Shown: piece by piece, positions 2,791 to 23,693 of the stretch
How positions within the stretch are numbered: position 1 is the first letter of the stretch
Layout of the letters: the number at the start of each line of letters is the position of its first letter
Source of the DNA: a virus
Strand: one strand, 5' to 3'
DNA: 56,152 bases
IMG/VR virus record: IMGVR_UViG_3300006737_007029
Location: 1 to 56,152 of that record
Notes under the pieces: generated by a model
The model's database searches: none
Told to the model about the DNA's origin: nothing
What the model saw: the letters and a program-made list of their open reading frames with translations, nothing else
Position numbers and translations under genes: made by a program

Positions 2791-2819
2791 GTACATATAT
2801 TATAATATAAGGAGACTTT

Positions 2820-5748: not shown

Positions 5749-6937
5749 ACATACCAAAGGCGAAGATCAAGCAAACAAATACTGGAACAACACAATATTA
5801 CCGTTGTTAAACAATGGTTCTTTGTCACATGCAGTAAACAACACTTACAAATATCCTAATCGTATAGGTTTGTATCCAGGCCTTAACTGTCAATTCTTTT
5901 GTACCTTTTGCGGAAGAAACTATGATGCAAAGTATGAACGATCAATTGCGGATGACAGTTTAGATGTTTTCAAAAGTATCATTGATCAAGATCCTAAGTC
6001 AGACGAAAATTGGCAAGACCGATTCCGAATAAGTGGAGGATTAGAACCTTTGACAAATCCTCATATAGGAGAGATTATACGTTACGGAAATTCAAAAGGC
6101 TTTAAAATGCAACTGTACACTAACGGTTATGCATTAACCGAAAACTTTATAGATAAGCAGATTGGTCTGCTAGACCTAGAAGTGATGCGTGTAAGTCTCT
6201 ATGGATATGATGATCAAAGTTATTATTCAGTCACAAAAAACAATAAGTCACACAAAATGGTTTTAAAAAACTTACAGAATTTTTGTAAACGTATGTCAGA
6301 GTCAGACAAACCTTTACGACTAGGAGTCAACTGGATTATACTACCCGGTCATAGCAATGATTTAAAAAAAGTTTTCCGTATGATCAAACAAATTAATGCA
6401 GTCAGTGACTTCAAAATATCATTCATCACACTACGTGAAGATTTCAGCCAAAGTAACAATTATATTTCCAATGTTGAAAGAAGTACTCTACACAATATAT
6501 TTTTAGAAGTTGAAGAAGAATGTGCAAATGACGATGACATGAAACATCTACACATTGATTATGGTTACGCACTACATCCTGTAAGACATGGATTAATCGA
6601 CGGGCCAATCAAAATGGCAAACTATGAACAAATGGATGGATATGGGTTCCCGCAAGTTGCGTCTGCTGTAGACAGTCTGGGCAATCAATATGTGTATCAT
6701 GAAAGTGGATTCCTTGACAGGCCAGGCAGTGATAGATATATCATTGGAAACGTCAAACAAGATTCGATTGAAGATATTGTTAAAAGACATTTGTCTGGGC
6801 CTGGAATAAAACCACGACCTTTTGATGTAGGATTTTTGGATGCATTTGATCACACCATAACATTATTAGTGGATGAAGCCAAAAATGCAGGCAATAGTTG
6901 GTTGGAAAAACTAGAACTTAAATGGAAACCTTATTGA
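5732..6937 (+). CDS. Radical SAM enzyme of the sugar cassette
   Basis: A 401-residue radical SAM protein. The [4Fe-4S]/SAM motif is C53-x3-C57-x2-C60 (NCQFFCTFCG). It is followed by ISGGLEPL, the glycine-rich SAM-contact strand, and VSLYG on a later strand of the partial TIM barrel. The C-terminus (GSDRYIIGNVKQDSIEDIV) looks like the end of SPASM-type proteins, but the cysteines of an auxiliary cluster are absent. Its position immediately after a DegT aminotransferase recalls the DesI-DesII pair of deoxyaminosugar pathways, in which a radical SAM enzyme deaminates the amino sugar. That is an analogy from context, not from specific residues. The 3' end overlaps the convergent repeat-protein gene by 20 bases, with no terminator hairpin between them. 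Confidence 0.88.
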   Translation: MRLGYKHTKGEDQANKYWNNTILPLLNNGSLSHAVNNTYKYPNRIGLYPGLNCQFFCTFCGRNYDAKYERSIADDSLDVFKSIIDQDPKSDENWQDRFRISGGLEPLTNPHIGEIIRYGNSKGFKMQLYTNGYALTENFIDKQIGLLDLEVMRVSLYGYDDQSYYSVTKNNKSHKMVLKNLQNFCKRMSESDKPLRLGVNWIILPGHSNDLKKVFRMIKQINAVSDFKISFITLREDFSQSNNYISNVERSTLHNIFLEVEEECANDDDMKHLHIDYGYALHPVRHGLIDGPIKMANYEQMDGYGFPQVASAVDSLGNQYVYHESGFLDRPGSDRYIIGNVKQDSIEDIVKRHLSGPGIKPRPFDVGFLDAFDHTITLLVDEAKNAGNSWLEKLELKWKPY

Positions 6938-9920
6938 ACTGATTCTTCAGCCATTCAAAATCATAACTTAATTTAATATCTTGTCCACTGTCAAAAAACT
7001 TTTGACCATCATTGGCTCCTTGTAATACCCACTCGCTATTTTCACCTTCTGCCACTGTGCACCAAATGTGCAATCTTTCTTGTGTAATTTTGTCAGGTTT
7101 TTGGCTATTAAAGTAATTCAGTTTGACCACTTCACGGAAAGCAGTCCTCCATGCCAACCATGGATCTTGATTGAACAGCATTGTAGTACTCATAATGTCT
7201 TCAAAATCATGTGCCTTAGACATTGTGAAGTCGATTCCAGGATCTGTTGTTTCTAGCACTAATTTTTTATTGTACAGAATAATTCCTTCATGACCATATT
7301 TTAATCCATTCACTGGATTGTAACTGTTGAAAATCCAATGGCAGGGATTGTGCAATCTATCAACTTGGTATTCAAAATCAAAGTCAGGATGAATATCTAA
7401 CTTAGGGAACACAGCAAAAAAATAATCAGTGTTTGATATTTCTGCCGCTTTGTGATAAGCCTGTGTTTGGCCTTTTATTCCATGCACCCTTTTGGCCCTT
7501 GGATATTTTTTAGTGAGTTGTTTGTATTTTTCGTCAGCCATTGGTTCATCATATGATATAAAAATTATGTCATTAGGTTGTGTTGATATATCATGTTGAT
7601 GCGTATCAATGGCAGGATAATCATACACTTGATCAATTACAAATGATTTTGCTTCACGTGGTACCAACAACATTTGCTTATGTGTGCCAAAACAATCGAT
7701 GTTGACTTCATCCCATCTTGCAGGATAATAGTTTGGCAATTTTTGTTGTTGCACACTGTCTTCTACAAACCATTCATAATGATGTGTGAATGTGTGTTGT
7801 TGTATCTTCTCGGCGGCACCTTGGCCCAATGAATACGTATTCACTGGAAGATCATAATAATTCAAATCAGATGTATGATATTTTATTGTATCGAACCATT
7901 CTAATTTTTGCAAGGTGTCCATTTGCTTTTTGAACTCAGCAAGTGGCACCCACATCACGTATCCATATTCAGATTGTTCATTATGAAACACATGAATATA
8001 TTTTGATTCCCAGTCAGCAGGATGCCATTTGTAATCAAAATTAGCATCATCCACAATAGAAGCTGTAATCCAAATGTTTCTTTCGTCACTGTTATTTGCT
8101 ATTCGTTTTATAAAATTAAACAAGTTTGAAAACAATCTTGTGCCTTCGTCGTCAGGTATCATGTTAGAACATCTGTGTATAGTGCCTGTGGTTTTGCGTA
8201 CAACTTTATTTTCATGAAACTGTTGTCTACAATCGTTTGGGTCCAACGCTTTGTTGATCAAATATGTACCAGAAGTTTCTGAAAACTGATCTCCAAACAC
8301 ATGTACAAATTTGCGTTGTGCTGTTTCAGGATGCCATGTAAAATCAAAATCTGAGTAATCATTTTCTTTGCTAGTTAACCAATACCATTCAGTGTTAGAT
8401 TCTGCATGATGATTTAATTCTCCATCATATTCTATAATATCAAATTTTGCGGTTCTGACAACAGTGTCAGGGTGATATTGCCATCTGATATTGGTAATAT
8501 CATGACTTTTGTGTACCAAATATGTATTGGAATCATCTGCGTGTTGATCACCAAAACAATGCACATATTTGGTTTGCCAACTCTCTGGATGCCATGTAAA
8601 ATCGAAGTCAGTATAGTCATTTTCATCGGAGATGATCCAGTACCAGTCAGTGTCCGAATTCACCGTCTTAAGACCGCTTATTTTGAATCTATTCCATGGT
8701 TTAACACGGTGGAAAGCATGATTATGATACTCTACTTTGACGTTATCCAAATCGCAGTCTTTTGGTACTAGATAGGTGTTTGCATCGTCAGAATGTTGAT
8801 CTCCAAAGCAGTGAACATACCTGCCCTTCCATGATTCTGGATGCCATTTGAAATCAAAATTTTGGTAATCATTTGCATCATCAACAATCCAATACCAATC
8901 CTGTTTGGTGTCGCATTTCTGCAATCCTTTGACATGAAACTGTTCAAATGATTCTGTACGGGTAATAGCATTTGGATGGTACTGTATTCTGGCGTTGTTT
9001 ATGTCAGTGTCGCGATGTACAAGGTATGTGCCAGCATCATCTGAGTATTGATCTCCAAAGCAATGAACATACTTGCTTTGCCATTCATCTGGATGCCAAG
9101 TAAAATCAAAATCAGAGTAATCATTACCATCGCTGGTTATCCAGTAGTATTCATCCTCAGTGTCACAGTTCTGAAGTTTTATACCATGAAACCTTTGAAA
9201 CGGTTTGTGACATGTCACAGTTTTAGGATGATAATATTTCCTTGCGTTAGCAAAGTCTACTTCATCTGCAACATAATATGTGCGTGAATCATCAGCATGT
9301 TGATCGCCAAAACAATGCACATATTTTTCTTCCCATGGTTCTGGATGCCATGTAAAATTAAATCCAGCATATGAATTCCTGTCATCAGTTTTCCAATGGA
9401 GGTGATTGTATCCAGTGCGTTTAATAACAAAGTTGTGATATTTGTATTCTATGTTTGCCAGATCACAATCTTTATGAATAATGTAAGTGCCACCATGTGT
9501 GCAGTGTTGATCAGGAAACACATGAACAAAATTTTTCTCCCATAGTGCAGGATGCCATGTAAAATCAAAATCAACATAATCATTAAATGGATTTGTCACC
9601 CAATACCATTCAGTAGATGTTTCTGATTGAAAGTCTATTTTATGTGTATCAGTAAAAACATCAAATGCTTGATTTCTTATTACTGTTTGCGATACAAATT
9701 TAAAGTCTGTTTGATTATCGTGATTGATGTGCACCAGATATGTTCCACCATGCACAGAGTGTTGATCTCCAAAAGCATGAATGAATTGTTTCTCCCAATC
9801 AGGCGGATCATAATCAAAATTAAAATTAGAATAATCTACTCGGCTGTCTGTGAGCCAGTACCATTCTGTGTTGGATTTATGTTGTGTGATTTGTCCTTCA
9901 AATGCATATCTATCATACAT
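6918..9920 (-). CDS. Large repeat protein (about nine ~85-residue W/H/D-rich repeats) ending in a degenerate GT-like domain
   Basis: A 1000-residue protein with two parts. Residues ~18-755 hold seven clear and two decayed repeats of about 85 residues. Each has an aromatic patch (WYW at about 20, 105, 258, 342, 426, 512), then DY-x-DFDFTWHP, a Trp/Lys stretch, H-x-FGDQH and a TYLVH strand. Repeats 3-6 share a VHCFGDQ cysteine. Residues ~784-940 resemble the GT2-like protein encoded at 20636-21520 (IIFISYDEP, AKRVHGIKG, NPVNGLKYG), but the DxD-type VDGDN of that protein is replaced by VFPKLD, so catalysis is doubtful. I recall related GT-like proteins in marine T4-like phages; so many repeats in one chain is unusual to me. 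It is the last gene of the minus-strand operon. A glycan- or protein-binding scaffold is one possible role; the function is unknown. Confidence 0.85.
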   Translation of the reverse strand: MYDRYAFEGQITQHKSNTEWYWLTDSRVDYSNFNFDYDPPDWEKQFIHAFGDQHSVHGGTYLVHINHDNQTDFKFVSQTVIRNQAFDVFTDTHKIDFQSETSTEWYWVTNPFNDYVDFDFTWHPALWEKNFVHVFPDQHCTHGGTYIIHKDCDLANIEYKYHNFVIKRTGYNHLHWKTDDRNSYAGFNFTWHPEPWEEKYVHCFGDQHADDSRTYYVADEVDFANARKYYHPKTVTCHKPFQRFHGIKLQNCDTEDEYYWITSDGNDYSDFDFTWHPDEWQSKYVHCFGDQYSDDAGTYLVHRDTDINNARIQYHPNAITRTESFEQFHVKGLQKCDTKQDWYWIVDDANDYQNFDFKWHPESWKGRYVHCFGDQHSDDANTYLVPKDCDLDNVKVEYHNHAFHRVKPWNRFKISGLKTVNSDTDWYWIISDENDYTDFDFTWHPESWQTKYVHCFGDQHADDSNTYLVHKSHDITNIRWQYHPDTVVRTAKFDIIEYDGELNHHAESNTEWYWLTSKENDYSDFDFTWHPETAQRKFVHVFGDQFSETSGTYLINKALDPNDCRQQFHENKVVRKTTGTIHRCSNMIPDDEGTRLFSNLFNFIKRIANNSDERNIWITASIVDDANFDYKWHPADWESKYIHVFHNEQSEYGYVMWVPLAEFKKQMDTLQKLEWFDTIKYHTSDLNYYDLPVNTYSLGQGAAEKIQQHTFTHHYEWFVEDSVQQQKLPNYYPARWDEVNIDCFGTHKQMLLVPREAKSFVIDQVYDYPAIDTHQHDISTQPNDIIFISYDEPMADEKYKQLTKKYPRAKRVHGIKGQTQAYHKAAEISNTDYFFAVFPKLDIHPDFDFEYQVDRLHNPCHWIFNSYNPVNGLKYGHEGIILYNKKLVLETTDPGIDFTMSKAHDFEDIMSTTMLFNQDPWLAWRTAFREVVKLNYFNSQKPDKITQERLHIWCTVAEGENSEWVLQGANDGQKFFDSGQDIKLSYDFEWLKNQFNKVSI
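7655..9865 (-). repeat. Tandem ~255-bp coding repeats in the large repeat protein
   Basis: The DNA for the nine protein repeats. The best conserved units (nucleotides about 8300-9600) share near-identical blocks such as the antisense of GGATGCCATGTAAAATC, which encodes the DFTWHP core. Copies R4-R6 are closest to each other and the first and last are most diverged, the usual pattern for growth by unequal recombination in the middle of an array. Confidence 0.8.
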
Positions 9921-9921
9921 G

Positions 9922-11370
9922 TCACGAGCAAACCTTTACGCCATATTTTTCTTCGAAGCGATCAGCATCTTCTCTTGTGTTCACCATCGGCTCACCACGA
10001 ATGTTTAGTGACGTATTCAGCAACATAGGACAACCTGTTTTTGCATACCAAGCTTCTAACAATGCTCTGAATCCTGTTGAATCATTTTTGCCCACTGTTT
10101 GTACTCTGCTGGTACCATCCACATGAATGATTGCTGGATACAGTTCTGGCTTCAAACATTCGCCTACAAACTGCATATGAGGTGAATGACTGGTACACAT
10201 CTTGAAGTTGTGTTGAACATGTTCTTCCAGTATTGCCGGAGCAAAAGGCCTGAACTTTTGTCTGCGTTTTATGGCATTCACTTGATCCTTAATTTCAGGA
10301 CCTCTAGGGTCTGCTAACAATGATCTGTGCCCTAAAGCACGTGGTCCAAATTCAGCACGACCAGACGCTACTCCCACTATCTTTTTGGTGTCTAATTCGT
10401 GCAATAACGCCTCTACAGGGTATGGATTATCAATATTGGTGCCAATGTACGGCCCCGGCCAATTGACATGTGATCCACGATGTGCAAGTGCGGCTCCGAG
10501 TGAAGATCCACAATCTCCTGGATTGGGCATTATCCACACATTTTCAAAGTAGTAATGCAACAAATGATTGGCCACACAGTTCAGGGCAACACCTCCCATA
10601 AAAACCACATTGTTCATTCTTGTCCATGTGTAGGCAGTACACATCAATTGGTCAATACATTCTTCTGTGACTTGCTGTATTGAAGCCGCAATATCCTCCA
10701 CTTTAGCATCTGGCATCCAGTTGCCTATTCCTTTGTGTACATTTTTCTTTAAATGAAAATGTGTAGGATTTACAAATTCTTGTTTTATTTGATGTGCATA
10801 CTTGGGTTTGCCCCAACCTGCCATGCCCATTGTTATATACTCTTCGTCCATGGGTTTCAATCCGCATCTTTGAGTAAATGCTGAGTACAATAATCCTAGT
10901 GAGTGCGGATAAGACCATGACGCAAGTCTTTTAAGTTTATTTCCTTTTGCTTCCCATATAGTAATGCATTCAAACTCTCCAATAGCATCTGCTACCACAA
11001 TTACTGCTTCTTTGAATGGTGATGTAAAATATCCTGCTGTTGCATGAGTGTAATGATGATCATACAGTTCGACTGGTGCTGTGATACCAAACTGTTTCAT
11101 GTATTTGCTTGGGTGCTGATCAAAAGAAGAATACCTCCATTCACCAGTCCATAATTTCCTAATGTTTTTCTTCCATGGCTTTTCATACCATGCTACCACA
11201 TCTGGCTTGCCCCAAGTGAGTGCTTCATTAACAATATCTTGATTTAATAATTTGTCATGTTTTACTCCTGAATATCTTTCTGCGTGAGCACCAAATACAA
11301 CTTCACCATCTTTAACAACACTTAATCCTGCATCGTGAAAGTGAGCAGATGCTCCCCAAACTACTCCCAT
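9922..11370 (-). CDS. O-carbamoyltransferase of the NodU/TobZ/CmcH family
   Basis: Transfers a carbamoyl group from carbamoyl phosphate, through carbamoyl-AMP, to a hydroxyl of a sugar or similar acceptor. Numbered from the ATG at 11370: GASAHFHDAG at 6-15 and the metal-binding His motif DHHYTHA at 104-110 with VADAIG at 126-131 belong to the Kae1-like part. FMGGVALNCVAN at 257-268 is the next nucleotide-site motif. GRAEFGPRALGHRS at 337-350 and RPFAPAIL at 374-381 belong to the YrdC-like part. Only about 480 residues long, it is shorter than typical members (roughly 540-600), mostly at the C-terminus. A longer reading from 11430 exists, but the ATG at 11370 gives the canonical N-terminus, so I prefer it. 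It overlaps the upstream transferase gene and probably decorates the sugar made by this gene set. Confidence 0.92.
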   Translation of the reverse strand: MGVVWGASAHFHDAGLSVVKDGEVVFGAHAERYSGVKHDKLLNQDIVNEALTWGKPDVVAWYEKPWKKNIRKLWTGEWRYSSFDQHPSKYMKQFGITAPVELYDHHYTHATAGYFTSPFKEAVIVVADAIGEFECITIWEAKGNKLKRLASWSYPHSLGLLYSAFTQRCGLKPMDEEYITMGMAGWGKPKYAHQIKQEFVNPTHFHLKKNVHKGIGNWMPDAKVEDIAASIQQVTEECIDQLMCTAYTWTRMNNVVFMGGVALNCVANHLLHYYFENVWIMPNPGDCGSSLGAALAHRGSHVNWPGPYIGTNIDNPYPVEALLHELDTKKIVGVASGRAEFGPRALGHRSLLADPRGPEIKDQVNAIKRRQKFRPFAPAILEEHVQHNFKMCTSHSPHMQFVGECLKPELYPAIIHVDGTSRVQTVGKNDSTGFRALLEAWYAKTGCPMLLNTSLNIRGEPMVNTREDADRFEEKYGVKVCS

Positions 11371-12401
11371 GTTCTTGTATCTCCAAATGCACTGTCCGGC
11401 ACACCCATTTCTTTTGCCATGGGTATCCATGTTTGATTTACATAATGCTTATAGTTGTATTCCAAAATGCTATTCATTTCTGCTTTCATTTCCTTTACAT
11501 TGTATTGTACACTAATCCAATCTACAATGTCTAATATTTTTTCCAGTCTTTGTCTGTGTGAATATTTGTCATAATCTTCTGACCACCAATTGTCAAATGT
11601 TTTAAAACCAATCTCTTTTAGTTTTCCAAGTGTGCCTTTACCGGCCATTAATAAAAATGGCGTTTTGAAAATGATGGGCCTCAAAGTTTTTTCTGTGGTA
11701 AAGCAAGTGTCTAGGTCTGTTTCACTTACAATATCAACAAACATATTTTTGTAATAATAGTGTAATGGAGCAACTTGTCTGGGCCATTCATAAAAATCAT
11801 CTTTACTTGGCGTTTCGTATGTATTTTTTTGTGGTAATGTGTCTGCCACTTCTCTTGCTCTTCCTATTAGTTTGCCTTTATCAAGATGTATTGGAATGTA
11901 ATTTTTCAATCTAGCAAAAAATTTGTCGTCAAAGTCCCAACCATTCCATATAGAGTACCACATGTCGTTTTGGTATTTTTCTAACATCACATGCATGGCC
12001 AATCTATCTGGTGATGCTCTACCTATAAAATGACCAAAAGTTTTAAACAGTCTGTCTGTCACATCTGGTTCAGAGGTTGGTTTGTATACATCTAACCATT
12101 TGTCATTGACCAAAGGCATTGTGTTGCAAGGATATGATGCAAACATGTCAGATATGTACAAAGTCAATTTATTCATCTCAATCCCACACTCTCCGGCAAC
12201 ACTTTCAATCACTGGCCATGCACCATTGGCATACAATCCATAACCTTCATTAGTAAAATCTATAACAGGATCAAATCCTTGTTTATTGCATCTGACAAAG
12301 TAGGCACGTAGGTCATCTTGGAGAGACGGAAATGTTTCGTGTAAGTTTATGTGCCCTGATGCGTTGAGATCGTAACATTCTGTTACTGGGTCTACAATCA
12401 T
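11361..12401 (-). CDS. Putative glycosyltransferase, paralogue of the upstream gene
   Basis: A 346-residue protein that pairs with the gene at 12398-13435. Shared landmarks are EGY/EGYGLY near the start, YPCN, HFIGRA-x2-DR near the middle, then FV-x-IV-x-ETD, F-x-TEKT-x-RPI and GFKTFD in the last third. A TEK motif following an acidic, polar segment and followed by a hydrophobic PF strand recalls the donor-site region of GT-B glycosyltransferases such as GT10 enzymes. That placement is by pattern only. I chose the ATG at 12401 because it has an AAAGGAC site and forms an ATGA overlap with the upstream stop; a longer TTG reading from 12428 has neither. The neighbours (carbamoyltransferase and other transferases) fit a role in glycan assembly. 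Confidence 0.75.
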   Translation of the reverse strand: MIVDPVTECYDLNASGHINLHETFPSLQDDLRAYFVRCNKQGFDPVIDFTNEGYGLYANGAWPVIESVAGECGIEMNKLTLYISDMFASYPCNTMPLVNDKWLDVYKPTSEPDVTDRLFKTFGHFIGRASPDRLAMHVMLEKYQNDMWYSIWNGWDFDDKFFARLKNYIPIHLDKGKLIGRAREVADTLPQKNTYETPSKDDFYEWPRQVAPLHYYYKNMFVDIVSETDLDTCFTTEKTLRPIIFKTPFLLMAGKGTLGKLKEIGFKTFDNWWSEDYDKYSHRQRLEKILDIVDWISVQYNVKEMKAEMNSILEYNYKHYVNQTWIPMAKEMGVPDSAFGDTRTWE

Positions 12402-13435: not shown

Positions 13436-13438
13436 TGA

Positions 13439-13543: not shown

Positions 13544-13551
13544 GTGTGTAA

Positions 13552-16704: not shown

Positions 16705-17978
16705 ATCAATAGTTCCGTTAGTTCAGGAAAAACTTCATGTGTTTCTTGCCCACGATGTTTGTCAAGTTGATGTGTTATTCTTTTGAAAGTAGGCAATAAA
16801 TCAGTTCTGTCTTCAGCCATCATCATATTCAATGCAGATTCAAATCCACCCGTTGCTCTACCCAAATGATCTTTAGGACGTATTTTTTCTATGTGTTCCT
16901 TGTATTTCGGTTCTACTTCTTGTTTCATTTTCGGAGTGATTACATCTATTCTATAATGTAAAGGATCTTGTACCATGTTCAAATTTAGATCACCTTCTCT
17001 TACAAAACCTTTTTCCATCCAATCATTATGGAAATCTATTACATGTGAATAGTTGAATATCCCAACTGTTGGCGAAATATAAAAGTCTACATTAGGACAT
17101 TTTTTAAGCATTGTTTCTCTGTTGTGTTCTACATCTGCCCATTTAGTACCATTACGCATTAATTCTGCTCTAGGACCCATAGCATCAAGTGATGCACCAA
17201 CTGACACATCTTTGAACTCTGGCCAATAATCAAACACATTAAGGTCTTTGTATGCTTGTCTTGTAAAGTTTGTATTGTAAATTAATCTTACTGTATCTGC
17301 TTTGCCTAGTCTAATAAGTTCTTTTAATATTTTATAATGCTCTTCCATAATGAGCGGTTCACCACCTGCAAAATAAACTTGTTCTACTACAGGCAAATAT
17401 TCTACCAATTGATCGTAAGCATCCATTTTGGTTGTTCCCGCGTAAGTTACTTTTGCATGATCAGGTTTGCCCCACAATGCTACTTGATCATCATACCAAT
17501 TAGAAGAAAACATTGACCCACAAGATCTGCAAGACAGATTGCACAAGTTAGAAAAACGTATGTCCCAATATATCATGTTTACATCATCATAATGTCCATC
17601 TGCAGATGTCTGTTGCACTTTGTCTATGTGATGCCCAAAGTGTATGTTTCCGGATTGCCTCATTGATGTCCATCCGTGTTCTTCTTGCTCATAACACTTA
17701 GTACATTGTTTAGATGGTTGTTCAGTCAACATGTTTTTTCTAATGTCTTTCATGTCTGCACTATTCCATAGTTCTTTTATAGTGTTTTCTTTCATAGACC
17801 CAATTGGATATTCATGTTTTGCAAGACAACAAGGATAGGCGGCTCCATTCGGATAAGCGTGTAAATGTGTCCAAGGCAATGTGCAAAAATACTTAGAATC
17901 ATTTAACAGATATTTTTCTCTATCTGTCAGTTTTTCAGCATCCACTTTGGTGGGCATTTTGTCTTTATAACTGCTCAT
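16701..17978 (-). CDS. Radical SAM protein with N-terminal Cys cluster, copy 3
   Basis: A 425-residue paralogue. About 30 residues of charged leader come before FCTLPWTHLH (C32), then YPCCLAKHE (C50/C51) and CTKC (C92, C95). The SAM motif is C146-x3-C150-x2-C153 (SNLCNLSCRSCG). FAGGEPLIMEEH follows in the barrel. It shares with copy 1 the sequence RFSNLCN before the motif and with copy 2 the LPW-x-H motif, placing the three in one subgroup. The start lies 14 bases inside the end of copy 4. All catalytic cysteines are present, so I read it as an active enzyme rather than a decayed duplicate. Confidence 0.9.
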   Translation of the reverse strand: MSSYKDKMPTKVDAEKLTDREKYLLNDSKYFCTLPWTHLHAYPNGAAYPCCLAKHEYPIGSMKENTIKELWNSADMKDIRKNMLTEQPSKQCTKCYEQEEHGWTSMRQSGNIHFGHHIDKVQQTSADGHYDDVNMIYWDIRFSNLCNLSCRSCGSMFSSNWYDDQVALWGKPDHAKVTYAGTTKMDAYDQLVEYLPVVEQVYFAGGEPLIMEEHYKILKELIRLGKADTVRLIYNTNFTRQAYKDLNVFDYWPEFKDVSVGASLDAMGPRAELMRNGTKWADVEHNRETMLKKCPNVDFYISPTVGIFNYSHVIDFHNDWMEKGFVREGDLNLNMVQDPLHYRIDVITPKMKQEVEPKYKEHIEKIRPKDHLGRATGGFESALNMMMAEDRTDLLPTFKRITHQLDKHRGQETHEVFPELTELLI

Positions 17979-19311
17979 ACCATGCTACCATTTCATTACC
18001 AAATGTGTTGGCAAATTTTTTGCCTCTGCGTTTATCATACTGCGAATAAAAGTTTTTGAAGTCACTCTGTAATTTATCCACATTGTCTGCTCCATAGTGA
18101 GGACTTTCAACCTCCTTTAAATATTCAATCAATCTAAGTATTTGATTAAGTTCCATACCGTGCAAATCATTGTAATAATCATGTGTTTGCTTAGTTAATT
18201 GTTCTATACATTCCTGTTTAATGCTAGTTGGCAATACTACTGCTGACTGAAATGAAGGAAAACGTAATATATTGAGAGTAAAGTTTGGATAATCAGCACC
18301 ATACTTGCGTTTCCAACTTACTAGCAAATCAATCATTTCAGGCAAAGAATCTAAACACAAAGCATTCACAGTCATCATTACATGCAAACCTGACAGACTT
18401 CCTTCATTAATAAGACGTAAACAATTTTTTTTCCAAAGTTCAAAGTCCATGCCATCCCTTATATATTCGGCTCTGGTCCCCATTGCTTCAGCTGAAGTGT
18501 AAACGTCAAAGTTTTTGACATAGTGTGACTTTTCAATCAATTGATCCATCAATTTATCTTTAGGGCACAGATTAGAATTAATTGCTAATCTAGTGTCTGA
18601 CTTGCCGTGGTTGTCTTTGAACCAATCAAACAGTTTCCACATGTCTGCACTCATTAGTGGTTCACCGCCTGTCACTCTTAATTCTTTCAATGTGCGATGT
18701 AAATCTGAATCCCACCATTTCCAAAATGCTTCTATGTAAGGATTATATTCCTGATATCCATACAGTTGCGATGATTCGTGTACATGCGTAAAATGATTTC
18801 TGCCATCTGATTGTAATTTTTCATATGCTCCATTATTTTTTATATCTTTGACCCAGGTCGTAGAAAAAGCAGGGTTGCAATATGAACATGCAAAATTACA
18901 AGTTCTATCAAAGGATATTTCTAATGTTTGTAAATCAACATCTTTTTGGCAAGGTGTGTCGAATGCTGTTTGCAAATCTTCATTTGAATATATGTTAGAT
19001 TTATAAACTCTATCCGATATACTGTTATCACCTAAGTCTTCTATCTTCCAACAGTATTCACAGCCAGCAGGTCTTTCGCCTGCCTGCATCTGTTCACGTT
19101 GCAATTTTTTCTCTGGTGTATTGTGTAGAGCTTTGGGATTACGTTTTACTGCCTCAATATCAATTTTGTGTGGCAAAGGATGATGGCAACTTGTGGTCAT
19201 ACCAGACCCTAACCATATTGTGGCATTGTACCACTTGGCTCCACAAAAGGACGATGACAGCGGATCTAACACCTGTCTTTTATATTTTAAATCTTCGTTG
19301 CTTGTTGACAT
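17965..19311 (-). CDS. Radical SAM protein with N-terminal Cys cluster, copy 4 (subgroup B)
   Basis: A 448-residue paralogue of subgroup B. The N-terminal cysteines are C23 (FCGAKW), C42 (TSCHHPLPHKID) and C84-x2-C87 (GCEYCWKIED). The SAM motif is C138-x3-C142-x2-C145 (RTCNFACSYCNPAFSTTW). VTGGEPLMSAD lies in the barrel. Unlike subgroup A, the second position is a single Cys followed by His-Pro, and a Lys-rich stretch with HNT-x-EKK follows. The closest relative is copy 5 directly upstream; the two align over most of their length, including the NPYxEAFWKWW segment. The start overlaps the end of copy 5 by 25 bases. Confidence 0.9.
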   Translation of the reverse strand: MSTSNEDLKYKRQVLDPLSSSFCGAKWYNATIWLGSGMTTSCHHPLPHKIDIEAVKRNPKALHNTPEKKLQREQMQAGERPAGCEYCWKIEDLGDNSISDRVYKSNIYSNEDLQTAFDTPCQKDVDLQTLEISFDRTCNFACSYCNPAFSTTWVKDIKNNGAYEKLQSDGRNHFTHVHESSQLYGYQEYNPYIEAFWKWWDSDLHRTLKELRVTGGEPLMSADMWKLFDWFKDNHGKSDTRLAINSNLCPKDKLMDQLIEKSHYVKNFDVYTSAEAMGTRAEYIRDGMDFELWKKNCLRLINEGSLSGLHVMMTVNALCLDSLPEMIDLLVSWKRKYGADYPNFTLNILRFPSFQSAVVLPTSIKQECIEQLTKQTHDYYNDLHGMELNQILRLIEYLKEVESPHYGADNVDKLQSDFKNFYSQYDKRRGKKFANTFGNEMVAWYEQL

Positions 19312-20654
19312 TGTTTAAACCAATCTTTGTATTCTGGAAAAACACCTAACAAATCTGTTTCACGTCTCGAGTCATGAGTTCGAAAGAAACGCCAAAAGTT
19401 TGCTAGGTGTTGTTCCTTGTTGTCCAGTCCTTGTTGCATTATGCGGTATGTCCGAGTAAGTTTAGCGATTTCAAAGTCTCTAAACCCTGCCATGTCAGAG
19501 TCATGTCGGTGTTGCTCCATAAACTCTATAGCCTCCTCGAAATAATGGTTAAAGGATTCGTCCAACAATCCTATATGTTGCCATATGGGAAACCTTAATA
19601 TGGGTGTATCAAACCACACCCTTTGATATGTTGTAGAATATTGTTCTCTTAATCTCAATATGTTTTTCAGTAAATCTTTCAAACTGGACACACTGAGGTT
19701 GTTCATTGTAATAATAAAAGTAATAGAATTGTATCCTTTTATGTCATGCAGATACCTGTGTACATTTGCCCACACTGTTCCAAAATCCATTCCGTTTCTA
19801 ATGTATTCTGCTTTTTCTCCCCAAGCATCCAAAGACACAAATTGCATGAAGTGTTCTATCATTGCACCATCACACATTGTTTTCACCATGTTGAAATATC
19901 TGTCACCTAGTGCAGGAGCGGGCGGACAAAAATTAGACGTTACGTTCAAATGTAAATCTTTTTTAGGATTATCTATCACATATTCAAACACCTTGTATGT
20001 GTTTTTGTCCATCATAGGTTCTCCACCAGTCATTCTGAAATGACGCAACTGCGGATACAGTTCTGGCCACCATTTCCAAAATGCTTCAACATATGGATTG
20101 TTATTTTGTGGCATAACTTTTCTATCACCTTTAAAATGTGCTGGATCATTATGTGGTGTTGATGTTGGCCATGATCCATGTTCTTCAGTTTCTTTTGCCC
20201 AAGCAGTTGAAAATTGCGGAGAACAATATGAACATTTAAAGTTGCAGGCATTACTGAAATCAACCTCAACATAAGTGGGCACAATGTCTGCTTGTGGATT
20301 ATCCAATATATTTTGATAGTGATCCATTGCCCATGGTTCTCCTGAACGATAATGTCTATCACTCATTTGTTTGTCATCTTCTAACTTCCAACAATATGAA
20401 CATCCTTCTGGTCTTTTTCCATTGATCATCAAATCACGTTGTGATTTCTTTTCATCAGTGTTGTGCAATTTAGAAGGATTTGTTTTAATTTGCTCTACAT
20501 CTATTTTGTGCAATGGTGGATGATAACAAGAGTTCGTCATACCATTTGTAAGATGCAGTGAAGTCTGCATCCATTTTGCCAGACACATAGAATCAGATAC
20601 CTTATCTAATTTGAGTTTTGCTTTGTTGGCGTCTGTTAAGTAATCGCTGGACAT
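19287..20654 (-). CDS. Radical SAM protein with N-terminal Cys cluster, copy 5 (subgroup B)
   Basis: A 455-residue paralogue and the first radical SAM gene of the stack in transcription order. The N-terminal cysteines are C24 (MCLAKW), C43 (SCYHPPLHKID) and C85-x2-C88 (GCSYCWKLED). The SAM motif is C137-x3-C141-x2-C144 (NACNFKCSYCSPQFSTAW). MTGGEPMMDKN is the SAM-binding strand. It pairs with copy 4 as subgroup B. It overlaps the GT2-like gene upstream by 19 bases, so the radical SAM stack is translationally tied to glycosyltransferase genes rather than standing as an independent unit. Confidence 0.9.
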   Translation of the reverse strand: MSSDYLTDANKAKLKLDKVSDSMCLAKWMQTSLHLTNGMTNSCYHPPLHKIDVEQIKTNPSKLHNTDEKKSQRDLMINGKRPEGCSYCWKLEDDKQMSDRHYRSGEPWAMDHYQNILDNPQADIVPTYVEVDFSNACNFKCSYCSPQFSTAWAKETEEHGSWPTSTPHNDPAHFKGDRKVMPQNNNPYVEAFWKWWPELYPQLRHFRMTGGEPMMDKNTYKVFEYVIDNPKKDLHLNVTSNFCPPAPALGDRYFNMVKTMCDGAMIEHFMQFVSLDAWGEKAEYIRNGMDFGTVWANVHRYLHDIKGYNSITFIITMNNLSVSSLKDLLKNILRLREQYSTTYQRVWFDTPILRFPIWQHIGLLDESFNHYFEEAIEFMEQHRHDSDMAGFRDFEIAKLTRTYRIMQQGLDNKEQHLANFWRFFRTHDSRRETDLLGVFPEYKDWFKQCQQATKI

Positions 20655-21520
20655 GAATTTATAAATTTAACAAATTTCGATTGTGTTTCATCTAGCAGTG
20701 CAACATTTAATCCTAAATGATAATTCAAATCGTTTTGCATTTCCTTTATATGTGTTTCTAATTCTGTTTCACTAATAATTGTTTGATCCCACAAGGTATC
20801 TAATGCTGTGAAGTCACGAGTGACAGAATGATCCCAGTCTTGGTTCAATGTCGTCCAATGACAGCCTTGACAAGCACCGTATATTGCCCATAATCCATTT
20901 TTAACATCAGCACCAATACTCATCCAGATACACAAATTTCTTAAATTTCCACGCCATATATCTTTAACAAAATTTGCTGGCGATACACGTTTGCCTTCAT
21001 CCAAACTCATTTTGACTCCTTCTCTAAATCCTGCCTGCCATGCCTGCTGTGATGTGCTGTTCATCACTGTGGTAGAATGACATTCTTGTATAGCAACGTA
21101 TTGATCATGAAAACAAAATTCAATCAAACTTGCATCATCACCTTCAGAGTTTTCATGCGTTTTCATATCTTTAACAAATTTTCTTGTCCATGAAGACACA
21201 CCACCGTTTCCATATTTTAATCCATTTACAATATTCAAACCTTGATATCTTATTACAGCATCTGCTGGCATGCTATCAACATCTAATTGTTGATCAAACA
21301 GAGTAGGATTAACGATGTTATCTCCATCGACTAATATGAAACGTTCTGTGCTTGATGCTTCTCCTGCCGCTTTGTGTGCCGCATCAGAACCTTCTACACC
21401 ATCCACACGTTTTGCCCATGGACATTTTGATCGCAAATCTGCCCAGTTGTGTTCTTTGTTTGGTTCATTGTAACTTAAAAAAATTACATCTAAATCTGCA
21501 ACATCAATCATCTTCTTCAT
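20636..21520 (-). CDS. GT2-like glycosyltransferase-type protein
   Basis: A 294-residue protein with a GT-A-like N-terminus. VIFLSYNEPN is near residue 12, AKRVDGVEG near 36, and a DxD-type metal site VDGDN is at 64-68, where a nucleotide-sugar would be held with a divalent ion. NIVNGLKYGNGG near 100 is a recurring motif of this phage family. The C-terminal domain of the 1000-residue repeat protein is homologous but has lost the DGD triad, so this gene may be the active member. The family is common in marine T4-like phages and is usually annotated only as glycosyltransferase-like. The start overlaps the preceding small gene by 17 bases. Confidence 0.75.
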   Translation of the reverse strand: MKKMIDVADLDVIFLSYNEPNKEHNWADLRSKCPWAKRVDGVEGSDAAHKAAGEASSTERFILVDGDNIVNPTLFDQQLDVDSMPADAVIRYQGLNIVNGLKYGNGGVSSWTRKFVKDMKTHENSEGDDASLIEFCFHDQYVAIQECHSTTVMNSTSQQAWQAGFREGVKMSLDEGKRVSPANFVKDIWRGNLRNLCIWMSIGADVKNGLWAIYGACQGCHWTTLNQDWDHSVTRDFTALDTLWDQTIISETELETHIKEMQNDLNYHLGLNVALLDETQSKFVKFINSCPAIT

Positions 21521-21851
21521 ACCCTACTACTGCGTGTTTTTCGGGATCAAACCATTCAGGTTCCTCAATCGCGTATTCTATAGCAGTATACAGTTGGAAT
21601 TTTATTATTACCCATCCTGGAAATGTGTTATGACCTTTCACTGTGAATTTCTTTTTCTTTTTTCCTTTTGTGCGATCTACAAATTTTCTCTCTAATGTCT
21701 TATCAACTACTTTCCATCGCGATGGACTATTTTGTACATCCAACCACGTTTTTGGATCAACTACAATATATTCACCTTCTGCAGTCTGTGTAGTCACTGT
21801 GGTGATTTCTTCGTCTTGATAATATATTCTATATTCCAACTGCATATTCAT
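21504..21851 (-). CDS. Small basic/acidic protein of unknown function
   Basis: A 115-residue protein that I do not recognise. It starts MNMQLEYRIYYQDEE, alternates short beta-like strands with charged turns, has a lysine run (GKKKKKF) at about residues 63-69, and ends in an acidic tail (YEEDD). There are no cysteines and no membrane segment. Either of the first two ATGs (21851 or 21845) could be used. It overlaps the GT8-like gene upstream by 23 bases and the GT2-like gene downstream by 17, so it is embedded in the operon and certainly cotranslated. A structural adaptor or chaperone for the transferases is possible, but nothing in the sequence shows it. Confidence 0.7.
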   Translation of the reverse strand: MNMQLEYRIYYQDEEITTVTTQTAEGEYIVVDPKTWLDVQNSPSRWKVVDKTLERKFVDRTKGKKKKKFTVKGHNTFPGWVIIKFQLYTAIEYAIEEPEWFDPEKHAVVGYEEDD

Positions 21852-22656
21852 ACTCCCTTATTAGTTTCTCCGTACAGAATGACTTGTCAAAATAATGTAT
21901 TGGCAATGATAATTGTGTACCGCACACTGTAAAATACTTATTTTTTAATAAACTCCATGTTATCTGATCCCAATCTGCTTGTTTTACAATCCCTTGTTTT
22001 ACATGTATAAAAGACGGATACACATCATTACTGACACAATTATTCATGTCTAGTTTGTCTAATGCTATGCTAAATGCAAAATCTGTGGATGGTTCGAATT
22101 TGTCAAACATTCTTAAGTTTTTAATTTCCTTATCCCAATTATTGAATACACTATTGGCTGTTTTCATAAACTTATCGGTCTGTCTTGTTGTCCTTACATA
22201 ATATAATCCTTGATATACATTAGGTAAGAGGTTTGTTTTGATGTATCTCCTATACTTTGAGTCATCTGCTTGTTGTTGTTTGAAATTGCAAACATGTCCT
22301 GTAAAACACAAGTCACGTAATCTAAAATATTTTTGCCATATCATGATGTCGGATGTACATAGCATGTCTGCTTCAAATTTGACCGTTTCTTTAAACGGTG
22401 ATAACTTTAACACATCGCACTCATACTGCATATTATTAACAACATCTCTTATGGGTAATTCTATTACATGATCAAATACTTTGTGTAAACTGCTTCTACA
22501 TTTTTGTTTGTCTTTTACTATTACAGCAAGTGATGGACAATGTTTGTGTGTCAGTTTAACACTCAATGCCCAAAGATGTGCAATACTTTCGTAATCTGTG
22601 TCCCCAGTATTCAAAGCATATGTAAGATATCCGTACTGTTCTTTGTCAGATAGCAT
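21829..22656 (-). CDS. GT8-like GT-A glycosyltransferase, member 1
   Basis: A 275-residue protein built like the next gene upstream. Both start with a short beta strand (YLTYALNTG here) and a stretch that follows sugar-nucleotide-type folds. Both contain SPF-x-(E/T)T followed by a hydrophobic strand and an acidic triad: here FKETVKFEADML with EAD at 95-97, in its partner IIIDSDYL. The triad is the expected place of the GT-A metal site, but Glu replaces the first Asp, so activity may be reduced or altered. A later segment (STDFAFSIAL) corresponds to NDHAFTIAM of the partner, as in GT8 enzymes. Overlaps of 11 and 23 bases with its neighbours show coupling. Confidence 0.65.
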   Translation of the reverse strand: MLSDKEQYGYLTYALNTGDTDYESIAHLWALSVKLTHKHCPSLAVIVKDKQKCRSSLHKVFDHVIELPIRDVVNNMQYECDVLKLSPFKETVKFEADMLCTSDIMIWQKYFRLRDLCFTGHVCNFKQQQADDSKYRRYIKTNLLPNVYQGLYYVRTTRQTDKFMKTANSVFNNWDKEIKNLRMFDKFEPSTDFAFSIALDKLDMNNCVSNDVYPSFIHVKQGIVKQADWDQITWSLLKNKYFTVCGTQLSLPIHYFDKSFCTEKLIREYEYAVGI

Positions 22657-23434
22657 TTAATAAACTTTCTTTGTTTAAGATGTGTACACTTTGATCAACT
22701 ATTATTTCACCATGTTGATCTTGCAACACAATATTTTTATTTGTAATCTTTTTTACTTCAAAATTTTGATTAGCTGTGATAATATCCCATGGTATCACTG
22801 TGTGTTCTGTAGAACCATGGTCTTGCATATTTGCCATAGCAATCGTGAATGCATGATCATTTCTTATCATGCGTTTGTTAAGACCAAACATCTGTGCATA
22901 AAATTGATAATTTTTCAAAATGTTTCTCCAGATGTCAAACATTTCTCTTACGGCGGCGTCTTTCTTGAACATCAATACAGTTGCCCACATCATGTCCAAC
23001 ATAGAGTTGCCCATTGGTAGTTTGGATACTTCTGCATAATTTATATCACACCATGTGGTGTGTGCCAACACTGATTGCCCTGATTCAAACAGCTTCAGTA
23101 AATTGTTGTCATACACAAGATAATCAGAATCGATTATTATTGTAGTGTCAAAAGGTGATAGTTCATAGGCGTCAACTCGTGCTAAGTTTTTCCATGGTTT
23201 TGGACCGCGGAGATTATGCACATTAACAGTAGGATCATCTGCCAGTATAGTCCAATCTGCAGATTTAATAATTTGATCGCCCACAACAACCACAGGAATC
23301 TCAGGACAATATATTCTTAACAGTTCAATACATTTTCCAGTTATCTTTGAATACTGCAATTCAGGTGTGTCAAAACTGAAAAGCAAAATGCCTTTATCGT
23401 AATATGATTTCTTGATACTCTTTGTCATACTCAT
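22646..23434 (-). CDS. GT8-like GT-A glycosyltransferase, member 2
   Basis: A 262-residue putative glycosyltransferase. LLFSFDTPE near residue 17 begins the nucleotide-binding half. RVDAYELSPFDTTIIIDSDYLV carries the DxD metal motif (D102-S-D104) in the arrangement seen in GT8 enzymes such as glycogenins and galactosyltransferases. The C-terminal NDHAFTIAM near 190 is typical of the acceptor-side segment. The start at 23434 or the internal ATG at 23428 are both possible. It lies 41 bases inside the 3' end of the first gene of the operon. Its paralogue follows directly, so two related transferases could add successive sugars. Confidence 0.75.
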   Translation of the reverse strand: MSMTKSIKKSYYDKGILLFSFDTPELQYSKITGKCIELLRIYCPEIPVVVVGDQIIKSADWTILADDPTVNVHNLRGPKPWKNLARVDAYELSPFDTTIIIDSDYLVYDNNLLKLFESGQSVLAHTTWCDINYAEVSKLPMGNSMLDMMWATVLMFKKDAAVREMFDIWRNILKNYQFYAQMFGLNKRMIRNDHAFTIAMANMQDHGSTEHTVIPWDIITANQNFEVKKITNKNIVLQDQHGEIIVDQSVHILNKESLLNAI

Positions 23435-23675
23435 TTAATATTTCGTTGTGTTTAAGTTGTAGAGTATGTCGAAAATCGTCTGCGTTTGGAATTTTGCAAG
23501 GTGTTTGATTGATATCTATAATAACTGCATCATCTTTCACCGTCTGTGCATAGGCTACTGTGTCAGCATCGGCTCTGAACATGCAACCATTATACACAAA
23601 TACCTCTTGTGATTTGACTCGTTGCTGTAACAATAAGAGATCACGTTTTAATGCAAATCTTTGTTTTGAACTCAT
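23394..23675 (-). CDS. Tail-fibre-assembly-chaperone-like protein (DUF4376-like pattern)
   Basis: A 93-residue protein, first gene of the 16-gene minus-strand operon. Residues 1-22 form a charged helix. Then comes EVFVYNGCMFRADADTVAY, a strand-turn-strand pattern like that of DUF4376 proteins found next to phage tail fibres, followed by a second strand pair (VIIDINQTPCKIPN) and a terminal helix of about 25 residues (HTLQLKHNEILNEYDKEY). Its place just after the tail-fibre and structural genes fits a fibre-folding helper. The assignment is a pattern judgement only. The ATG directly abuts an 18-bp palindrome and a sigma70-like promoter. The 3' end overlaps the next gene by 41 bases. Confidence 0.6.
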   Translation of the reverse strand: MSSKQRFALKRDLLLLQQRVKSQEVFVYNGCMFRADADTVAYAQTVKDDAVIIDINQTPCKIPNADDFRHTLQLKHNEILNEYDKEYQEIILR

Positions 23676-23693
23676 AACTTATTATAATAAGTT
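23676..23693. promoter_or_regulatory. Perfect 18-bp palindrome at the operon start
   Basis: AACTTATTATAATAAGTT reads identically on both strands. The TATAAT -10 box sits in its centre and its edge touches the start codon at 23675. A repressor or anti-terminator binding here would control the whole downstream operon. It could also be a chance AT palindrome or a weak hairpin. Confidence 0.5.

What the first reader, a model, noticed from the sequence alone, without database searches (positions are those of the whole stretch)
6918..23675. A 16-gene, gap-free operon combining transferases, radical SAM enzymes, carbamoyltransferase and esterase-like hydrolase
Every junction from 23675 to 6918 overlaps or is spaced by fewer than ten bases. 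The content points to building and decorating a glycan or another surface molecule: at least three types of transferase, O-carbamoylation, SGNH hydrolysis and five radical SAM steps. With the SDR/DegT/radical SAM cassette on the other strand, it would be a near-complete pathway carried by a lytic-type phage. Targets could be host LPS or capsule (superinfection exclusion) or the fibres themselves.
Basis: inference. Interest (0 to 1): 0.8.

Follow-up and report, generated by a model that had tools for sequence, protein, structure and literature searches.

The report
Jumbo phage radical-SAM glycan operon
A lineage of giant, so far uncultured water phages carries next to its tail-fibre genes a conserved 16-gene pathway of sugar-transferring, carbamoyl-transferring and five radical-forming enzymes, which probably builds an unusual chemical decoration, perhaps for the phage particle itself.

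Summary
In detail: 16 genes on the minus strand, 23675-6918, each junction overlapping or at most 8 bp apart, provided a 34-residue gene (13439-13543) is counted. It is not a lone curiosity. The block, in the same order and directly behind fibre genes, recurs in 9 of 10 other phage records read over long stretches, some 316-345 kb; its five N-twitch radical SAM paralogues fall into five clades. Core: an O-carbamoyltransferase (TobZ/NovN kin), GT-B- and GT-A-like transferases, five radical SAM enzymes and a microprotein ending DPFIY plus one residue. Some relatives add SAM synthetase, MTA/SAH nucleosidase, amidinotransferase or halogenase. A DesII-like radical SAM with DegT/SDR converges on it. 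No strongly hydrophobic segment was seen in its proteins, and exact late-promoter-like sites lie only before fibre and baseplate genes. I favour a late, cytosolic pathway decorating virion adhesins (about 0.5); host-surface change, a small metabolite, or RiPP-like peptide chemistry remain open; cytosine hypermodification is disfavoured. The acceptor is not shown. Closest parallel: the five-radical-SAM plus amidinotransferase module of Campylobacter phage CP220, unexplained since 2010. New variant of a known kind.

The parts
26278..26285 (-). TATAAATA, T4-late-promoter-like site 18 bp before fib515
   Evidence: 2 copies in the window, both minus strand and intergenic; 7 of 7 sense copies in 10 records intergenic. 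That TATAAATA is the T4 late consensus is recalled
24720..26267 (-). fib515, fibre-like virion protein, upstream in the same transcription unit
   Evidence: weak PHROG matches to virion structural and tail fibre families; conserved position
23728..24720 (-). p330, Ser/Thr-rich (23%) protein just before the transferases; candidate acceptor/adhesin
   Evidence: no PHROG hit
23676..23693 (.). 18-bp perfect palindrome abutting the p93 start
   Evidence: kept in G001, absent in G002, G004, G006
23394..23675 (-). p93, small protein of unknown function
22646..23434 (-). p262, GT8-like by motif (IIIDSDY)
   Evidence: motif only; no family or PDB hit
21829..22656 (-). p275, GT8-like by motif (EADML)
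   Evidence: motif only; no family hit
21504..21851 (-). p115, small protein of unknown function
20636..21520 (-). GT294, transferase-like, DGD motif, paralogue of the rep1000 C-terminal domain
   Evidence: (30% to rep1000)
19287..20654 (-). rS1, N-twitch radical SAM
   Evidence: NF033640 320 bits; CX3CX2C and N-terminal Cys set
17965..19311 (-). rS2, N-twitch radical SAM
   Evidence: NF033640 310 bits
16701..17978 (-). rS3, N-twitch radical SAM
   Evidence: NF033640 405 bits; tree
15544..16704 (-). rS4, N-twitch radical SAM
   Evidence: NF033640 343 bits
14219..15547 (-). rS5, N-twitch radical SAM
   Evidence: NF033640 308 bits
13552..14232 (-). SGNH-hydrolase-like protein (motif GCSF; weak)
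   Evidence: read from sequence; another protein, just before CT in L018, has DUF6071/GDSL hits below cut-off
13439..13543 (-). 34-aa microprotein ending DPFIYH, linked to the carbamoyltransferase
12398..13435 (-). GTa, GT-B-fold glycosyltransferase without a Pfam or PHROG family
   Evidence: AlphaFold2 pLDDT 89.7
11361..12401 (-). GTb, paralogue of GTa (32-35%)
9922..11370 (-). O-carbamoyltransferase (NovN/GdmN/TobZ kin)
6918..9920 (-). rep1000, tandem W/H/D-rich repeats plus C-terminal GT-A-like domain (model residues 779-982)
5732..6937 (+). rSAM0, DesII-like radical SAM, convergent with the operon
4603..5748 (+). DegT sugar aminotransferase (hits include 7b0d, QdtB, 2oga, WbpE)
3689..4606 (+). 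NDP-sugar SDR (epimerase/dehydratase family; SSSNVYG, not the DEVYG of RmlB, recalled)

Best explanation
The operon is the enzyme half of a lineage-specific tail-fibre region of jumbo myophages. Expressed late together with the fibre genes, it works in the cytosol: host NDP-sugars, in part reshaped by the SDR/DegT/DesII-like cassette, are transferred by GT-A-like (p262, p275, GT294, rep1000) and GT-B (GTa, GTb) enzymes onto an acceptor, most likely fibre or adhesin proteins such as p330 or fib515; five non-redundant N-twitch radical SAM enzymes carry out separate C-H activating steps on that sugar or acceptor, each spending SAM (some relatives encode SAM synthetase and a nucleosidase that could clear the by-product); the carbamoyltransferase caps a hydroxyl, and the SGNH-like protein adds or removes an acyl group. 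Shown here: gene content, order, conservation, purifying selection, predicted folds of GTa and the rep1000 C-terminus, placement of late-promoter-like sites. Inferred: substrates, order of steps, late timing, virion as acceptor.
For: Same order p330-(p93)-p262-p275-GT294-rS1..rS5-CT, behind fibre and (where the contig reaches) baseplate genes, in 9 of 10 other records plus the window (G010 lacks it; G002 and G006 begin inside the fibre genes). 66 of 80 carbamoyltransferase loci hold 3 or more N-twitch radical SAM ORFs. TATAAATA: 7 sense-strand copies in 443,252 bases, all 7 intergenic (3.2% of sequence), before fib515 in 4 of 10 records, gp6 in 2, p219 in 1; none inside the operon, none on the other strand. 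No hydrophobic segment over the threshold in operon or cassette proteins. Five radical SAM clades, cluster motifs intact in the window. dN/dS 0-0.18. rep1000 C-terminus: GT-A-like, SunS/ThuS peptide S-glycosyltransferases and polypeptide GalNAc transferases among the 10 Foldseek hits under 0.001. MetK in 12, nucleosidase in 13 of 80 loci (one of each confirmed by Pfam).
Against: No acceptor, product or expression data. The exact late-promoter motif precedes fib515 in only 4 of 10 records, two of them near-identical, and the motif is not more frequent than chance in the window. GTa's best structural neighbours are tied between DNA-, protein- and glycan-acting GT-B enzymes (T4 AGT among the top); in the second look at rep1000 the ganglioside enzyme B4GALNT1 ranks first (Z 11.2) and cytidylyltransferases are tied with SunS/ThuS. 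Carbamoyltransferase, amidinotransferase, halogenase and AMP-ligase kin are typical of small-molecule pathways. p330 is less conserved (33-37%) than rS1-rS5 and CT (43-61%) between window and freshwater records. A membrane antiporter-like gene lies beside the SDR in one relative (L094).
Confidence: 0.5

Rival explanations
1. Host-surface modification: the enzymes alter LPS or capsule sugars of the infected cell so that rival phages cannot attach (superinfection exclusion), as proposed for cyanophage and pelagiphage glycan genes.
For: Published reading for similar gene sets (PMC7824862 section 22; PMC7029224 passages); amino- and deoxy-sugar genes are typical of O-antigen loci; the transferase genes do turn over between relatives.
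Against: No hydrophobic protein, flippase, polymerase or initiating transferase recognised among the operon and cassette proteins; promoter-like sites only on the fibre side; the radical SAM and CT genes are a conserved core rather than serotype-like.
Confidence: 0.2
2. Diffusible small molecule: an aminoglycoside- or secondary-metabolite-like product made during infection (toxin, signal or cofactor), as suggested for the S-SSM6a cluster.
For: Enzyme set resembles antibiotic pathways: NovN/GdmN/TobZ kin, AGAT/StrB1/SxtG-like amidinotransferase in 40 of 80 loci, Trp halogenase and AMP-ligase in 5 of 80 each, DesII-like enzyme. Prior suggestion: PMC7824862 section 22.
Against: No exporter or resistance gene recognised among the window proteins scanned; several glycosyltransferases and a long repeat protein; fibre-side context.
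Confidence: 0.13
3. DNA hypermodification: the carbamoyltransferase and GTs modify hydroxymethyl-pyrimidines in phage DNA.
For: A phage-type carbamoyltransferase makes 5-carbamoyloxymethylcytosine, and such genes co-occur with thymidylate synthase homologues (PMC8670742 passages); GTa is close in fold to T4 AGT; ThyX or ThyA lies near the cluster in 28 and 4 of 80 loci.
Against: Thymidylate-synthase family PF00303 not found in 9 of 10 module-bearing records of 208-354 kb (completeness unknown, some records closely alike); the ThyA neighbours in 4 of 4 loci carry Asn in GVPFNIASY, the dUMP form; 28 of 80 loci have ThyX; among solved structures CT is closest to natural-product enzymes.
Confidence: 0.05
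4. Peptide chemistry: the 34-aa microprotein is a ribosomal precursor (like PqqA or MftA, recalled) whose conserved C-terminus is modified by the radical SAM enzymes and then glycosylated or carbamoylated.
For: Homologues in 63 of 80 CT loci; found by its own scan it lies beside CT in 79 and beside an N-twitch radical SAM in 74 of 80 loci, and all 80 of those end DPFIY or DPFIY plus one residue (partly built in, as one of the two scan patterns asks for it); SPASM/twitch radical SAM enzymes often act on peptides (recalled).
Against: 6 of 80 loci have microprotein and CT but no radical SAM within reach; 9 of 17 CT loci without it keep 3 or more radical SAMs; no peptidase or precursor-recognition domain recognised. 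A CT partner subunit explains the data as well.
Confidence: 0.12

Closest known systems
Campylobacter phage CP220 / CPt10 radical SAM modules (Firehammervirus; PMC2853527 passages, record FN667788)
   Same: Five radical SAM genes, a pentein amidinotransferase and two nucleotide-sugar transferase genes in one block shortly after baseplate gp5 and PAAR genes; amidinotransferase homologous to that of the freshwater relatives (31 bits, E 9e-11 in a search of 16 proteins); function unknown.
   Different: 0 of 5 of its radical SAM proteins reach the N-twitch cut-off (best listed 31 of 170 bits); no carbamoyltransferase annotated and no microprotein found in the 49.9 kb read; between CP220 and CPt10 the block is exchanged en bloc, here it is a conserved core. 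The window itself lacks the amidinotransferase.
Aeromonas jumbo phage 332-Vera (PMC12390700, passages)
   Same: Eight radical SAM genes inside the large structural/tail-fibre gene cluster, called highly unusual by its authors.
   Different: A chimallin-type (phiKZ-like) phage; its record is not in the collection, so homology is untested.
phiKZ-like Burkholderia/Ralstonia jumbo phages FLC6, S13, phiRP12/phiRP31 (PMC8066314, PMC11898562, PMC5468394, one passage each)
   Same: Several radical SAM or Fe-S oxidoreductase genes close together, in FLC6 and S13 with cupin and 2OG-oxygenase genes.
   Different: No carbamoyltransferase in the passages seen; sequence relation not tested.
Cyanophage P-SSM2 LPS cluster and S-SSM6a secondary-metabolite-like cluster (PMC7824862 section 22)
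   Same: Epimerase, nucleotidyltransferase and glycosyltransferase genes, and in S-SSM6a carbamoyltransferases, halogenase and 2OG oxygenases.
   Different: No radical SAM array described in that section; CT only 28-30% identical; different genome place for P-SSM2 and S-SSM7 CT; no microprotein within 3 kb of CT in 5 Kyanoviridae phages, nor within 12 kb in C48C1.
Pelagimyophage host recognition cluster (PMC7029224, passages)
   Same: Fibre-side island with glycosyltransferases and radical SAM cassettes.
   Different: Described as a hypervariable island; 'carbamoyl' does not occur in its text.
Desosamine enzymes DesI/DesII/DesV
   Same: rSAM0 is homologous to DesII over its length; DegT resembles keto-sugar aminotransferases (2oga as DesV is recalled).
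   Different: Below the DesII equivalog cut-off (321 of 450 bits).

Membership tests
N-twitch radical SAM family (NF033640) | Score over the curated cut-off of 170 bits across the profile, N-terminal twitch before the radical SAM core | tested here: met
   5 of 5: 308, 343, 405, 310, 320 bits; CX3CX2C, GGEP and an N-terminal Cys set in all five
O-carbamoyltransferase (TobZ/NodU type) | Carbam_trans_N and _C domains | tested here: met
   134 and 174 bits, cut-offs 24 and 27
5-hydroxymethylcytosine carbamoyltransferase (DNA) | Partner thymidylate-synthase-like hydroxymethylase (Asp at position 177) | tested here: not met
   PF00303 not found in 9 of 10 large records (the tenth not examined for the residue); 4 of 4 neighbouring ThyA carry Asn
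5-hydroxymethylcytosine carbamoyltransferase (DNA) | Activity on 5hmdC | not testable with these tools
   needs an enzyme assay
GT-B glycosyltransferases (GTa, GTb) | Two-Rossmann GT-B fold | tested here: met
   GTa model pLDDT 89.7; VIA rows Z 8.7-10.6, nearly all GT-B enzymes or fusions with one, tied; Foldseek TM of the query only 0.15-0.40; GTb by homology only
GT-A glycosyltransferases (rep1000 C-terminus) | GT-A fold | tested here: met
   Model residues 779-982 spanned: B4GALNT1 Z 11.2, rmsd 2.8 over 140; Foldseek E 1.4e-4 to SunS, whole-chain TM low; sugar nucleotidyltransferases and IspD of like fold are tied, so a transferase role is not proved by fold
GT-A glycosyltransferases (rep1000 C-terminus) | DxD metal motif in that domain | tested here: inconclusive
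   Paralogue GT294 has DGD; rep1000 has another stretch there
DesII ammonia-lyase | Score over equivalog cut-off 450 | tested here: not met
   321 bits, L008 copy 336 bits; homologous but not assignable as DesII
CP220-type phage radical SAM module | Radical SAM array plus amidinotransferase plus sugar transferases beside baseplate genes | tested here: inconclusive
   Found in freshwater relatives, amidinotransferase absent from the window; radical SAM families differ: works like it, not a member
SGNH/GDSL hydrolase (13552-14232) | Family profile match | tested here: not met
   No Pfam, PHROG, NCBIfam or PDB hit
RiPP pathway | Conserved precursor peptide next to maturase genes | tested here: inconclusive
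   Microprotein beside CT in 79 of 80, beside a radical SAM in 74 of 80
RiPP pathway | Modified peptide product | not testable with these tools
   needs mass spectrometry

The most novel reading that the evidence does not exclude
The DPFIY microprotein is a ribosomal precursor peptide (or peptide carrier) matured by the five N-twitch radical SAM enzymes and then glycosylated and carbamoylated, giving a peptide-derived cofactor or cap installed on the virion: a virus-borne RiPP-type pathway, with its own SAM supply and by-product clearance in some relatives.
Probability: 0.12. Interest if true: 0.92.

Novelty: new variant of a known kind. Interest (0 to 1): 0.72.

Why it matters
Sets of radical SAM genes in phage genomes were called highly unusual and left unexplained for Campylobacter phages CP220/CPt10 (2010) and again for Aeromonas phage 332-Vera (2025). 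Here the array is a conserved, ordered, five-part core of a jumbo-phage lineage, with a strongly conserved microprotein, a carbamoyltransferase and, in some relatives, SAM synthesis and by-product removal. That turns a list of odd genes into a definable pathway with testable acceptors (fibre proteins, microprotein) and protein families for which no Pfam or PHROG family was hit (GTa/GTb, rep1000) or no Pfam family (the ~360-aa X350).

Tried and rejected
DNA hypermodification was taken seriously because of the carbamoyltransferase precedent, and set back by ThyA residue 177, ThyX replacement and the PF00303 search. T4 gp23 search (PF07068) rang nowhere, controls included, so says nothing. Bacterial context: the rep1000 pattern scan of 84,980 species genomes confirmed no relative (30 pattern matches, two short patterns only), but that is not absence: a profile search of the contigs fetched for rS3 found 9 rep/GT294-like ORFs in 8 of 79 loci (L128-L131, L156, L194, L197, L199), several of which look like phage contigs binned into MAGs. 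rS3 kin occur in many bacteria, often as single genes in unlike neighbourhoods, so context gave no substrate. Phage records (50,697): near-identity search of the operon no match; tblastn of GTa, rep1000, rS2, GT294 no match; rS3 3 records; rS5 at E up to 1 weak hits in 41; CT 137 records, all under 60% identity. Microprotein tblastn: no match, but the low-complexity filter may have masked it. The codon pattern found nothing because it was badly chosen (arginine only before Asp); it is not used. PDB hits of p262 and of the SGNH-like protein are chance-level and rejected; profiles of GTa and rep1000 had none. TATAAATA is not more frequent than chance in the window (2 against 3.8), and the looser WTAAATAY is rarer (7 against 18.7; 4 of the 7 are minus-strand intergenic before fib515, fib714, fib531 and gp6, 3 lie in ORFs); the argument is placement only. 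RNA fold of the microprotein region is unremarkable (z 0.11). Sigma70 and terminator scans at chance level.

Literature searches. In what I opened (outline, passages or one section; no whole paper) I saw no description of this five-gene array with a carbamoyltransferase in jumbo phages; 'radical SAM' + 'jumbo phage' + 'glycosyltransferase' gave 0 papers. Of the 7 papers I saw passages of 6; PMC9960720 was not opened. Of the 11 I opened 4 (PMC12390700, PMC7029224, PMC2853527, PMC12398825). Whether the lineage equals the 'moraphages' of PMC12619734 (outline and passages; no 'radical', 'carbamoyl' or 'MoxR' in its text) was not tested.

The motif scan fixes D, P and F and allows I/V/L and Y/F, so its 41 of 41 DPFIY (distinct sequences over 86 loci) is partly built in. 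In the tree (quick method) labels came from best match to window proteins and the 22 bacterial rows were picked by likeness to rS3, so clustering by label and the bacterial place by rS3 are partly built in; 5 extra copies fall outside their clade (L018p1, L018p2, L029p1, L040p3, L043p6). The hydropathy scan is Kyte-Doolittle, window 19, threshold 1.6, not a trained predictor.
Full report
WHAT IS THERE. The window is a virus record of 56,152 bases. Its baseplate wedge protein (47914-51399) scores 946 bits to a tail PHROG and has its best phage matches, at 33-35%, in jumbo myophages such as SCTP-2, Atu_ph07, GAP32 and K64-1, so the window is taken as a fragment of a large myophage. From 23675 down to 6918 on the minus strand there are 16 genes with gaps from -41 to +8 bp, counting a 34-aa gene. 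All five radical SAM genes belong to the N-twitch family NF033640. The carbamoyltransferase has both family domains and hits NovN, GdmN and TobZ structures. GTa models as a GT-B enzyme with pLDDT 89.7. The 1000-aa protein has tandem repeats and a C-terminal GT-A-like domain at residues 779-982; its middle is modelled poorly. The convergent plus-strand cassette is SDR, DegT aminotransferase and a DesII-like radical SAM.

IS IT REAL AND CONSERVED. Against the nearest relative (G001), the 16 genes and the cassette have dN/dS of 0 to 0.18, like baseplate and fibre genes. Six contigs found with the 1000-aa protein show the same block and flanks as far as they reach, with local swaps of transferases and optional DegT/DesII. 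Of 80 carbamoyltransferase loci, 73 have at least one, 66 at least three and 45 at least five N-twitch radical SAM ORFs within the flanks; 56 have the repeat protein, 61 a GTa relative, 57 an unnamed ~360-aa protein (X350), 44 DegT, 45 SDR. Ten other records were read over longer stretches: in nine, and in the window, the order is p330 - (p93) - p262 - p275 - GT294 - rS1 - rS2 - rS3 - rS4 - rS5 - CT, with extra genes at places, after fib515 and, where the contig reaches, after p219, the giant protein and gp6; the repeat protein, DegT/SDR and a vWA/MoxR pair lie beyond where covered. G010 is the exception: four radical SAM matches and CT, no fibre part. These records reach 345 kb. A quick tree of 118 sequences gives five clades that match the five genes (rS4 and rS5 one clade each; rS1 11 of 12, rS2 21 of 22, rS3 19 of 22 rows).

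MICROPROTEIN. The 34-aa gene would be easy to miss. A motif scan found homologues in 63 of 80 CT loci, in 62 of them upstream of CT within 4 kb; in 27 its stop overlaps the carbamoyltransferase ORF by a few bases. A scan made with the microprotein alignment returned 80 loci, of which 79 hold the carbamoyltransferase and 74 an N-twitch radical SAM; all 80 carry DPFIY at or one residue before the C-terminus, a count partly built in by one scan pattern. Within the 80 CT loci it goes with radical SAM arrays (57 of 63 against 9 of 17) and with GTa/GTb (56 of 63 against 5 of 17; the loci are related, so the Fisher values printed there are not probabilities). It was not found beside the carbamoyltransferase in six Kyanoviridae records nor in the CP220, K566 and AG-345-D19 stretches. 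Its tightest partner is thus the carbamoyltransferase.

SAM CYCLE AND VARIANT CHEMISTRY. Orthologous clusters also hold, by similarity to one Pfam-checked example each, SAM synthetase (12 of 80), an MTA/SAH nucleosidase-like protein of the PNP/UDP phosphorylase family (13), a cytidylyltransferase-like protein (10), FkbM methyltransferase (6), AMP-ligase and tryptophan halogenase (5 each), a Gfo/Idh oxidoreductase (5) and an FAD/NAD reductase (3), and an AGAT/StrB1/SxtG-like amidinotransferase in 40, placed by PDB similarity with no Pfam hit. MTA/SAH nucleosidases can also clear 5'-deoxyadenosine, the radical SAM by-product (recalled). This suggests that the radical SAM enzymes are active and that SAM is in demand.

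WHERE AND WHEN IT WORKS. No operon or cassette protein has a hydrophobic stretch over the threshold, and nothing for lipid-linked export was recognised in them. TATAAATA, the T4 late promoter consensus (recalled), occurs 7 times on the sense strand of 443,252 bases in ten records, each time intergenic, 13-33 bp before fib515 (4 records), gp6 (2) or p219 (1), and not on the other strand (the window and G001 are near-identical, so five independent sites). The operon has none of its own and follows fib515 and p330 after 52 bp. The simplest reading is late co-expression with fibres. That favours decoration of virion proteins over early remodelling of the host surface, but does not prove it.

RIVALS. 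DNA hypermodification by a carbamoyltransferase is known (PMC8670742, passages), but its partner enzyme was not found here. Host-surface change and small-molecule synthesis are published guesses for related clusters (PMC7824862 section 22; PMC7029224 passages) and remain possible. The CP220 module (PMC2853527 passages; record read) shows the same logic, radical SAM array plus amidinotransferase plus sugar transferases near baseplate genes, built from other radical SAM families; its amidinotransferase is homologous to the freshwater one here. Radical SAM groups are also reported for 332-Vera and for phiKZ-like Burkholderia/Ralstonia phages. So the kind is known though unexplained, and this is a new, far more conserved variant of it.

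LIMITS. All evidence is from sequence and predicted structure. Hosts are unknown; that the larger relatives are freshwater phages is my reading of contig sources and was not checked. Substrates and acceptor are inferred. GT8-like and SGNH labels are weak. Counts come from capped scans with redundant contigs.

Noticed in passing
window 14219-21520 against G001: Synonymous divergence is uneven: dS 3.4 for rS4 (saturated), 1.0 for rS3, 0.9 GT294, 0.8 rS2, but 0.19-0.66 for the other 24 genes compared; suggests local allele replacement by recombination inside the operon.
   Followed up: no
window 23676-23693: Only perfect palindrome of 16 bp or more in the window, directly before the first operon gene; kept in G001 only among four relatives checked.
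   Followed up: partly
window 26766-27260: Small protein that reads like a 2OG oxygenase (by eye; weak PHROG match labelled DNA endonuclease) between fibre genes, kept in G001, G004, G006.
   Followed up: no
window 34992-47912: A 4306-aa giant protein between baseplate and fibre genes; the larger relatives align in three pieces at 26-39%.
   Followed up: no
L051:15532-20886 and others: Among relatives of at least 400 residues the repeat protein varies from 438 to 1784 residues, apparently by repeat number.
   Followed up: partly
L023:7601-8659, L043:8788-9876: X350, an unnamed ~360-aa family between rS5 and the carbamoyltransferase in 57 of 80 loci, no Pfam hit for the one tested; no ORF of that size at that place in L003, L005, L006, L082.
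   Followed up: partly
window 499-3682: MoxR-like ATPase, vWA-like protein (PHROG names it HNH endonuclease) and two small proteins form a conserved flank in near and distant relatives.
   Followed up: no
L008:11497-14206: Phage-borne AMP-ligase next to a tryptophan-halogenase-family protein (306 bits) inside the cluster.
   Followed up: no
L094:511-5071 (G007 about 270,511-275,071): DesII-like 460-aa protein, a second DegT and SDR in a row, another DegT beyond (L008), a DesI/DesII/DesV-like arrangement; next to it a hydrophobic antiporter-like protein.
   Followed up: partly
L128-L131, L156: Contigs filed under bacterial MAGs (Betaproteobacteria, Pelagibacter, Rickettsiales, Verrucomicrobia, Rhodobacteraceae) carry the fibre-plus-radical-SAM block, so they are probably misbinned phage.
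   Followed up: no
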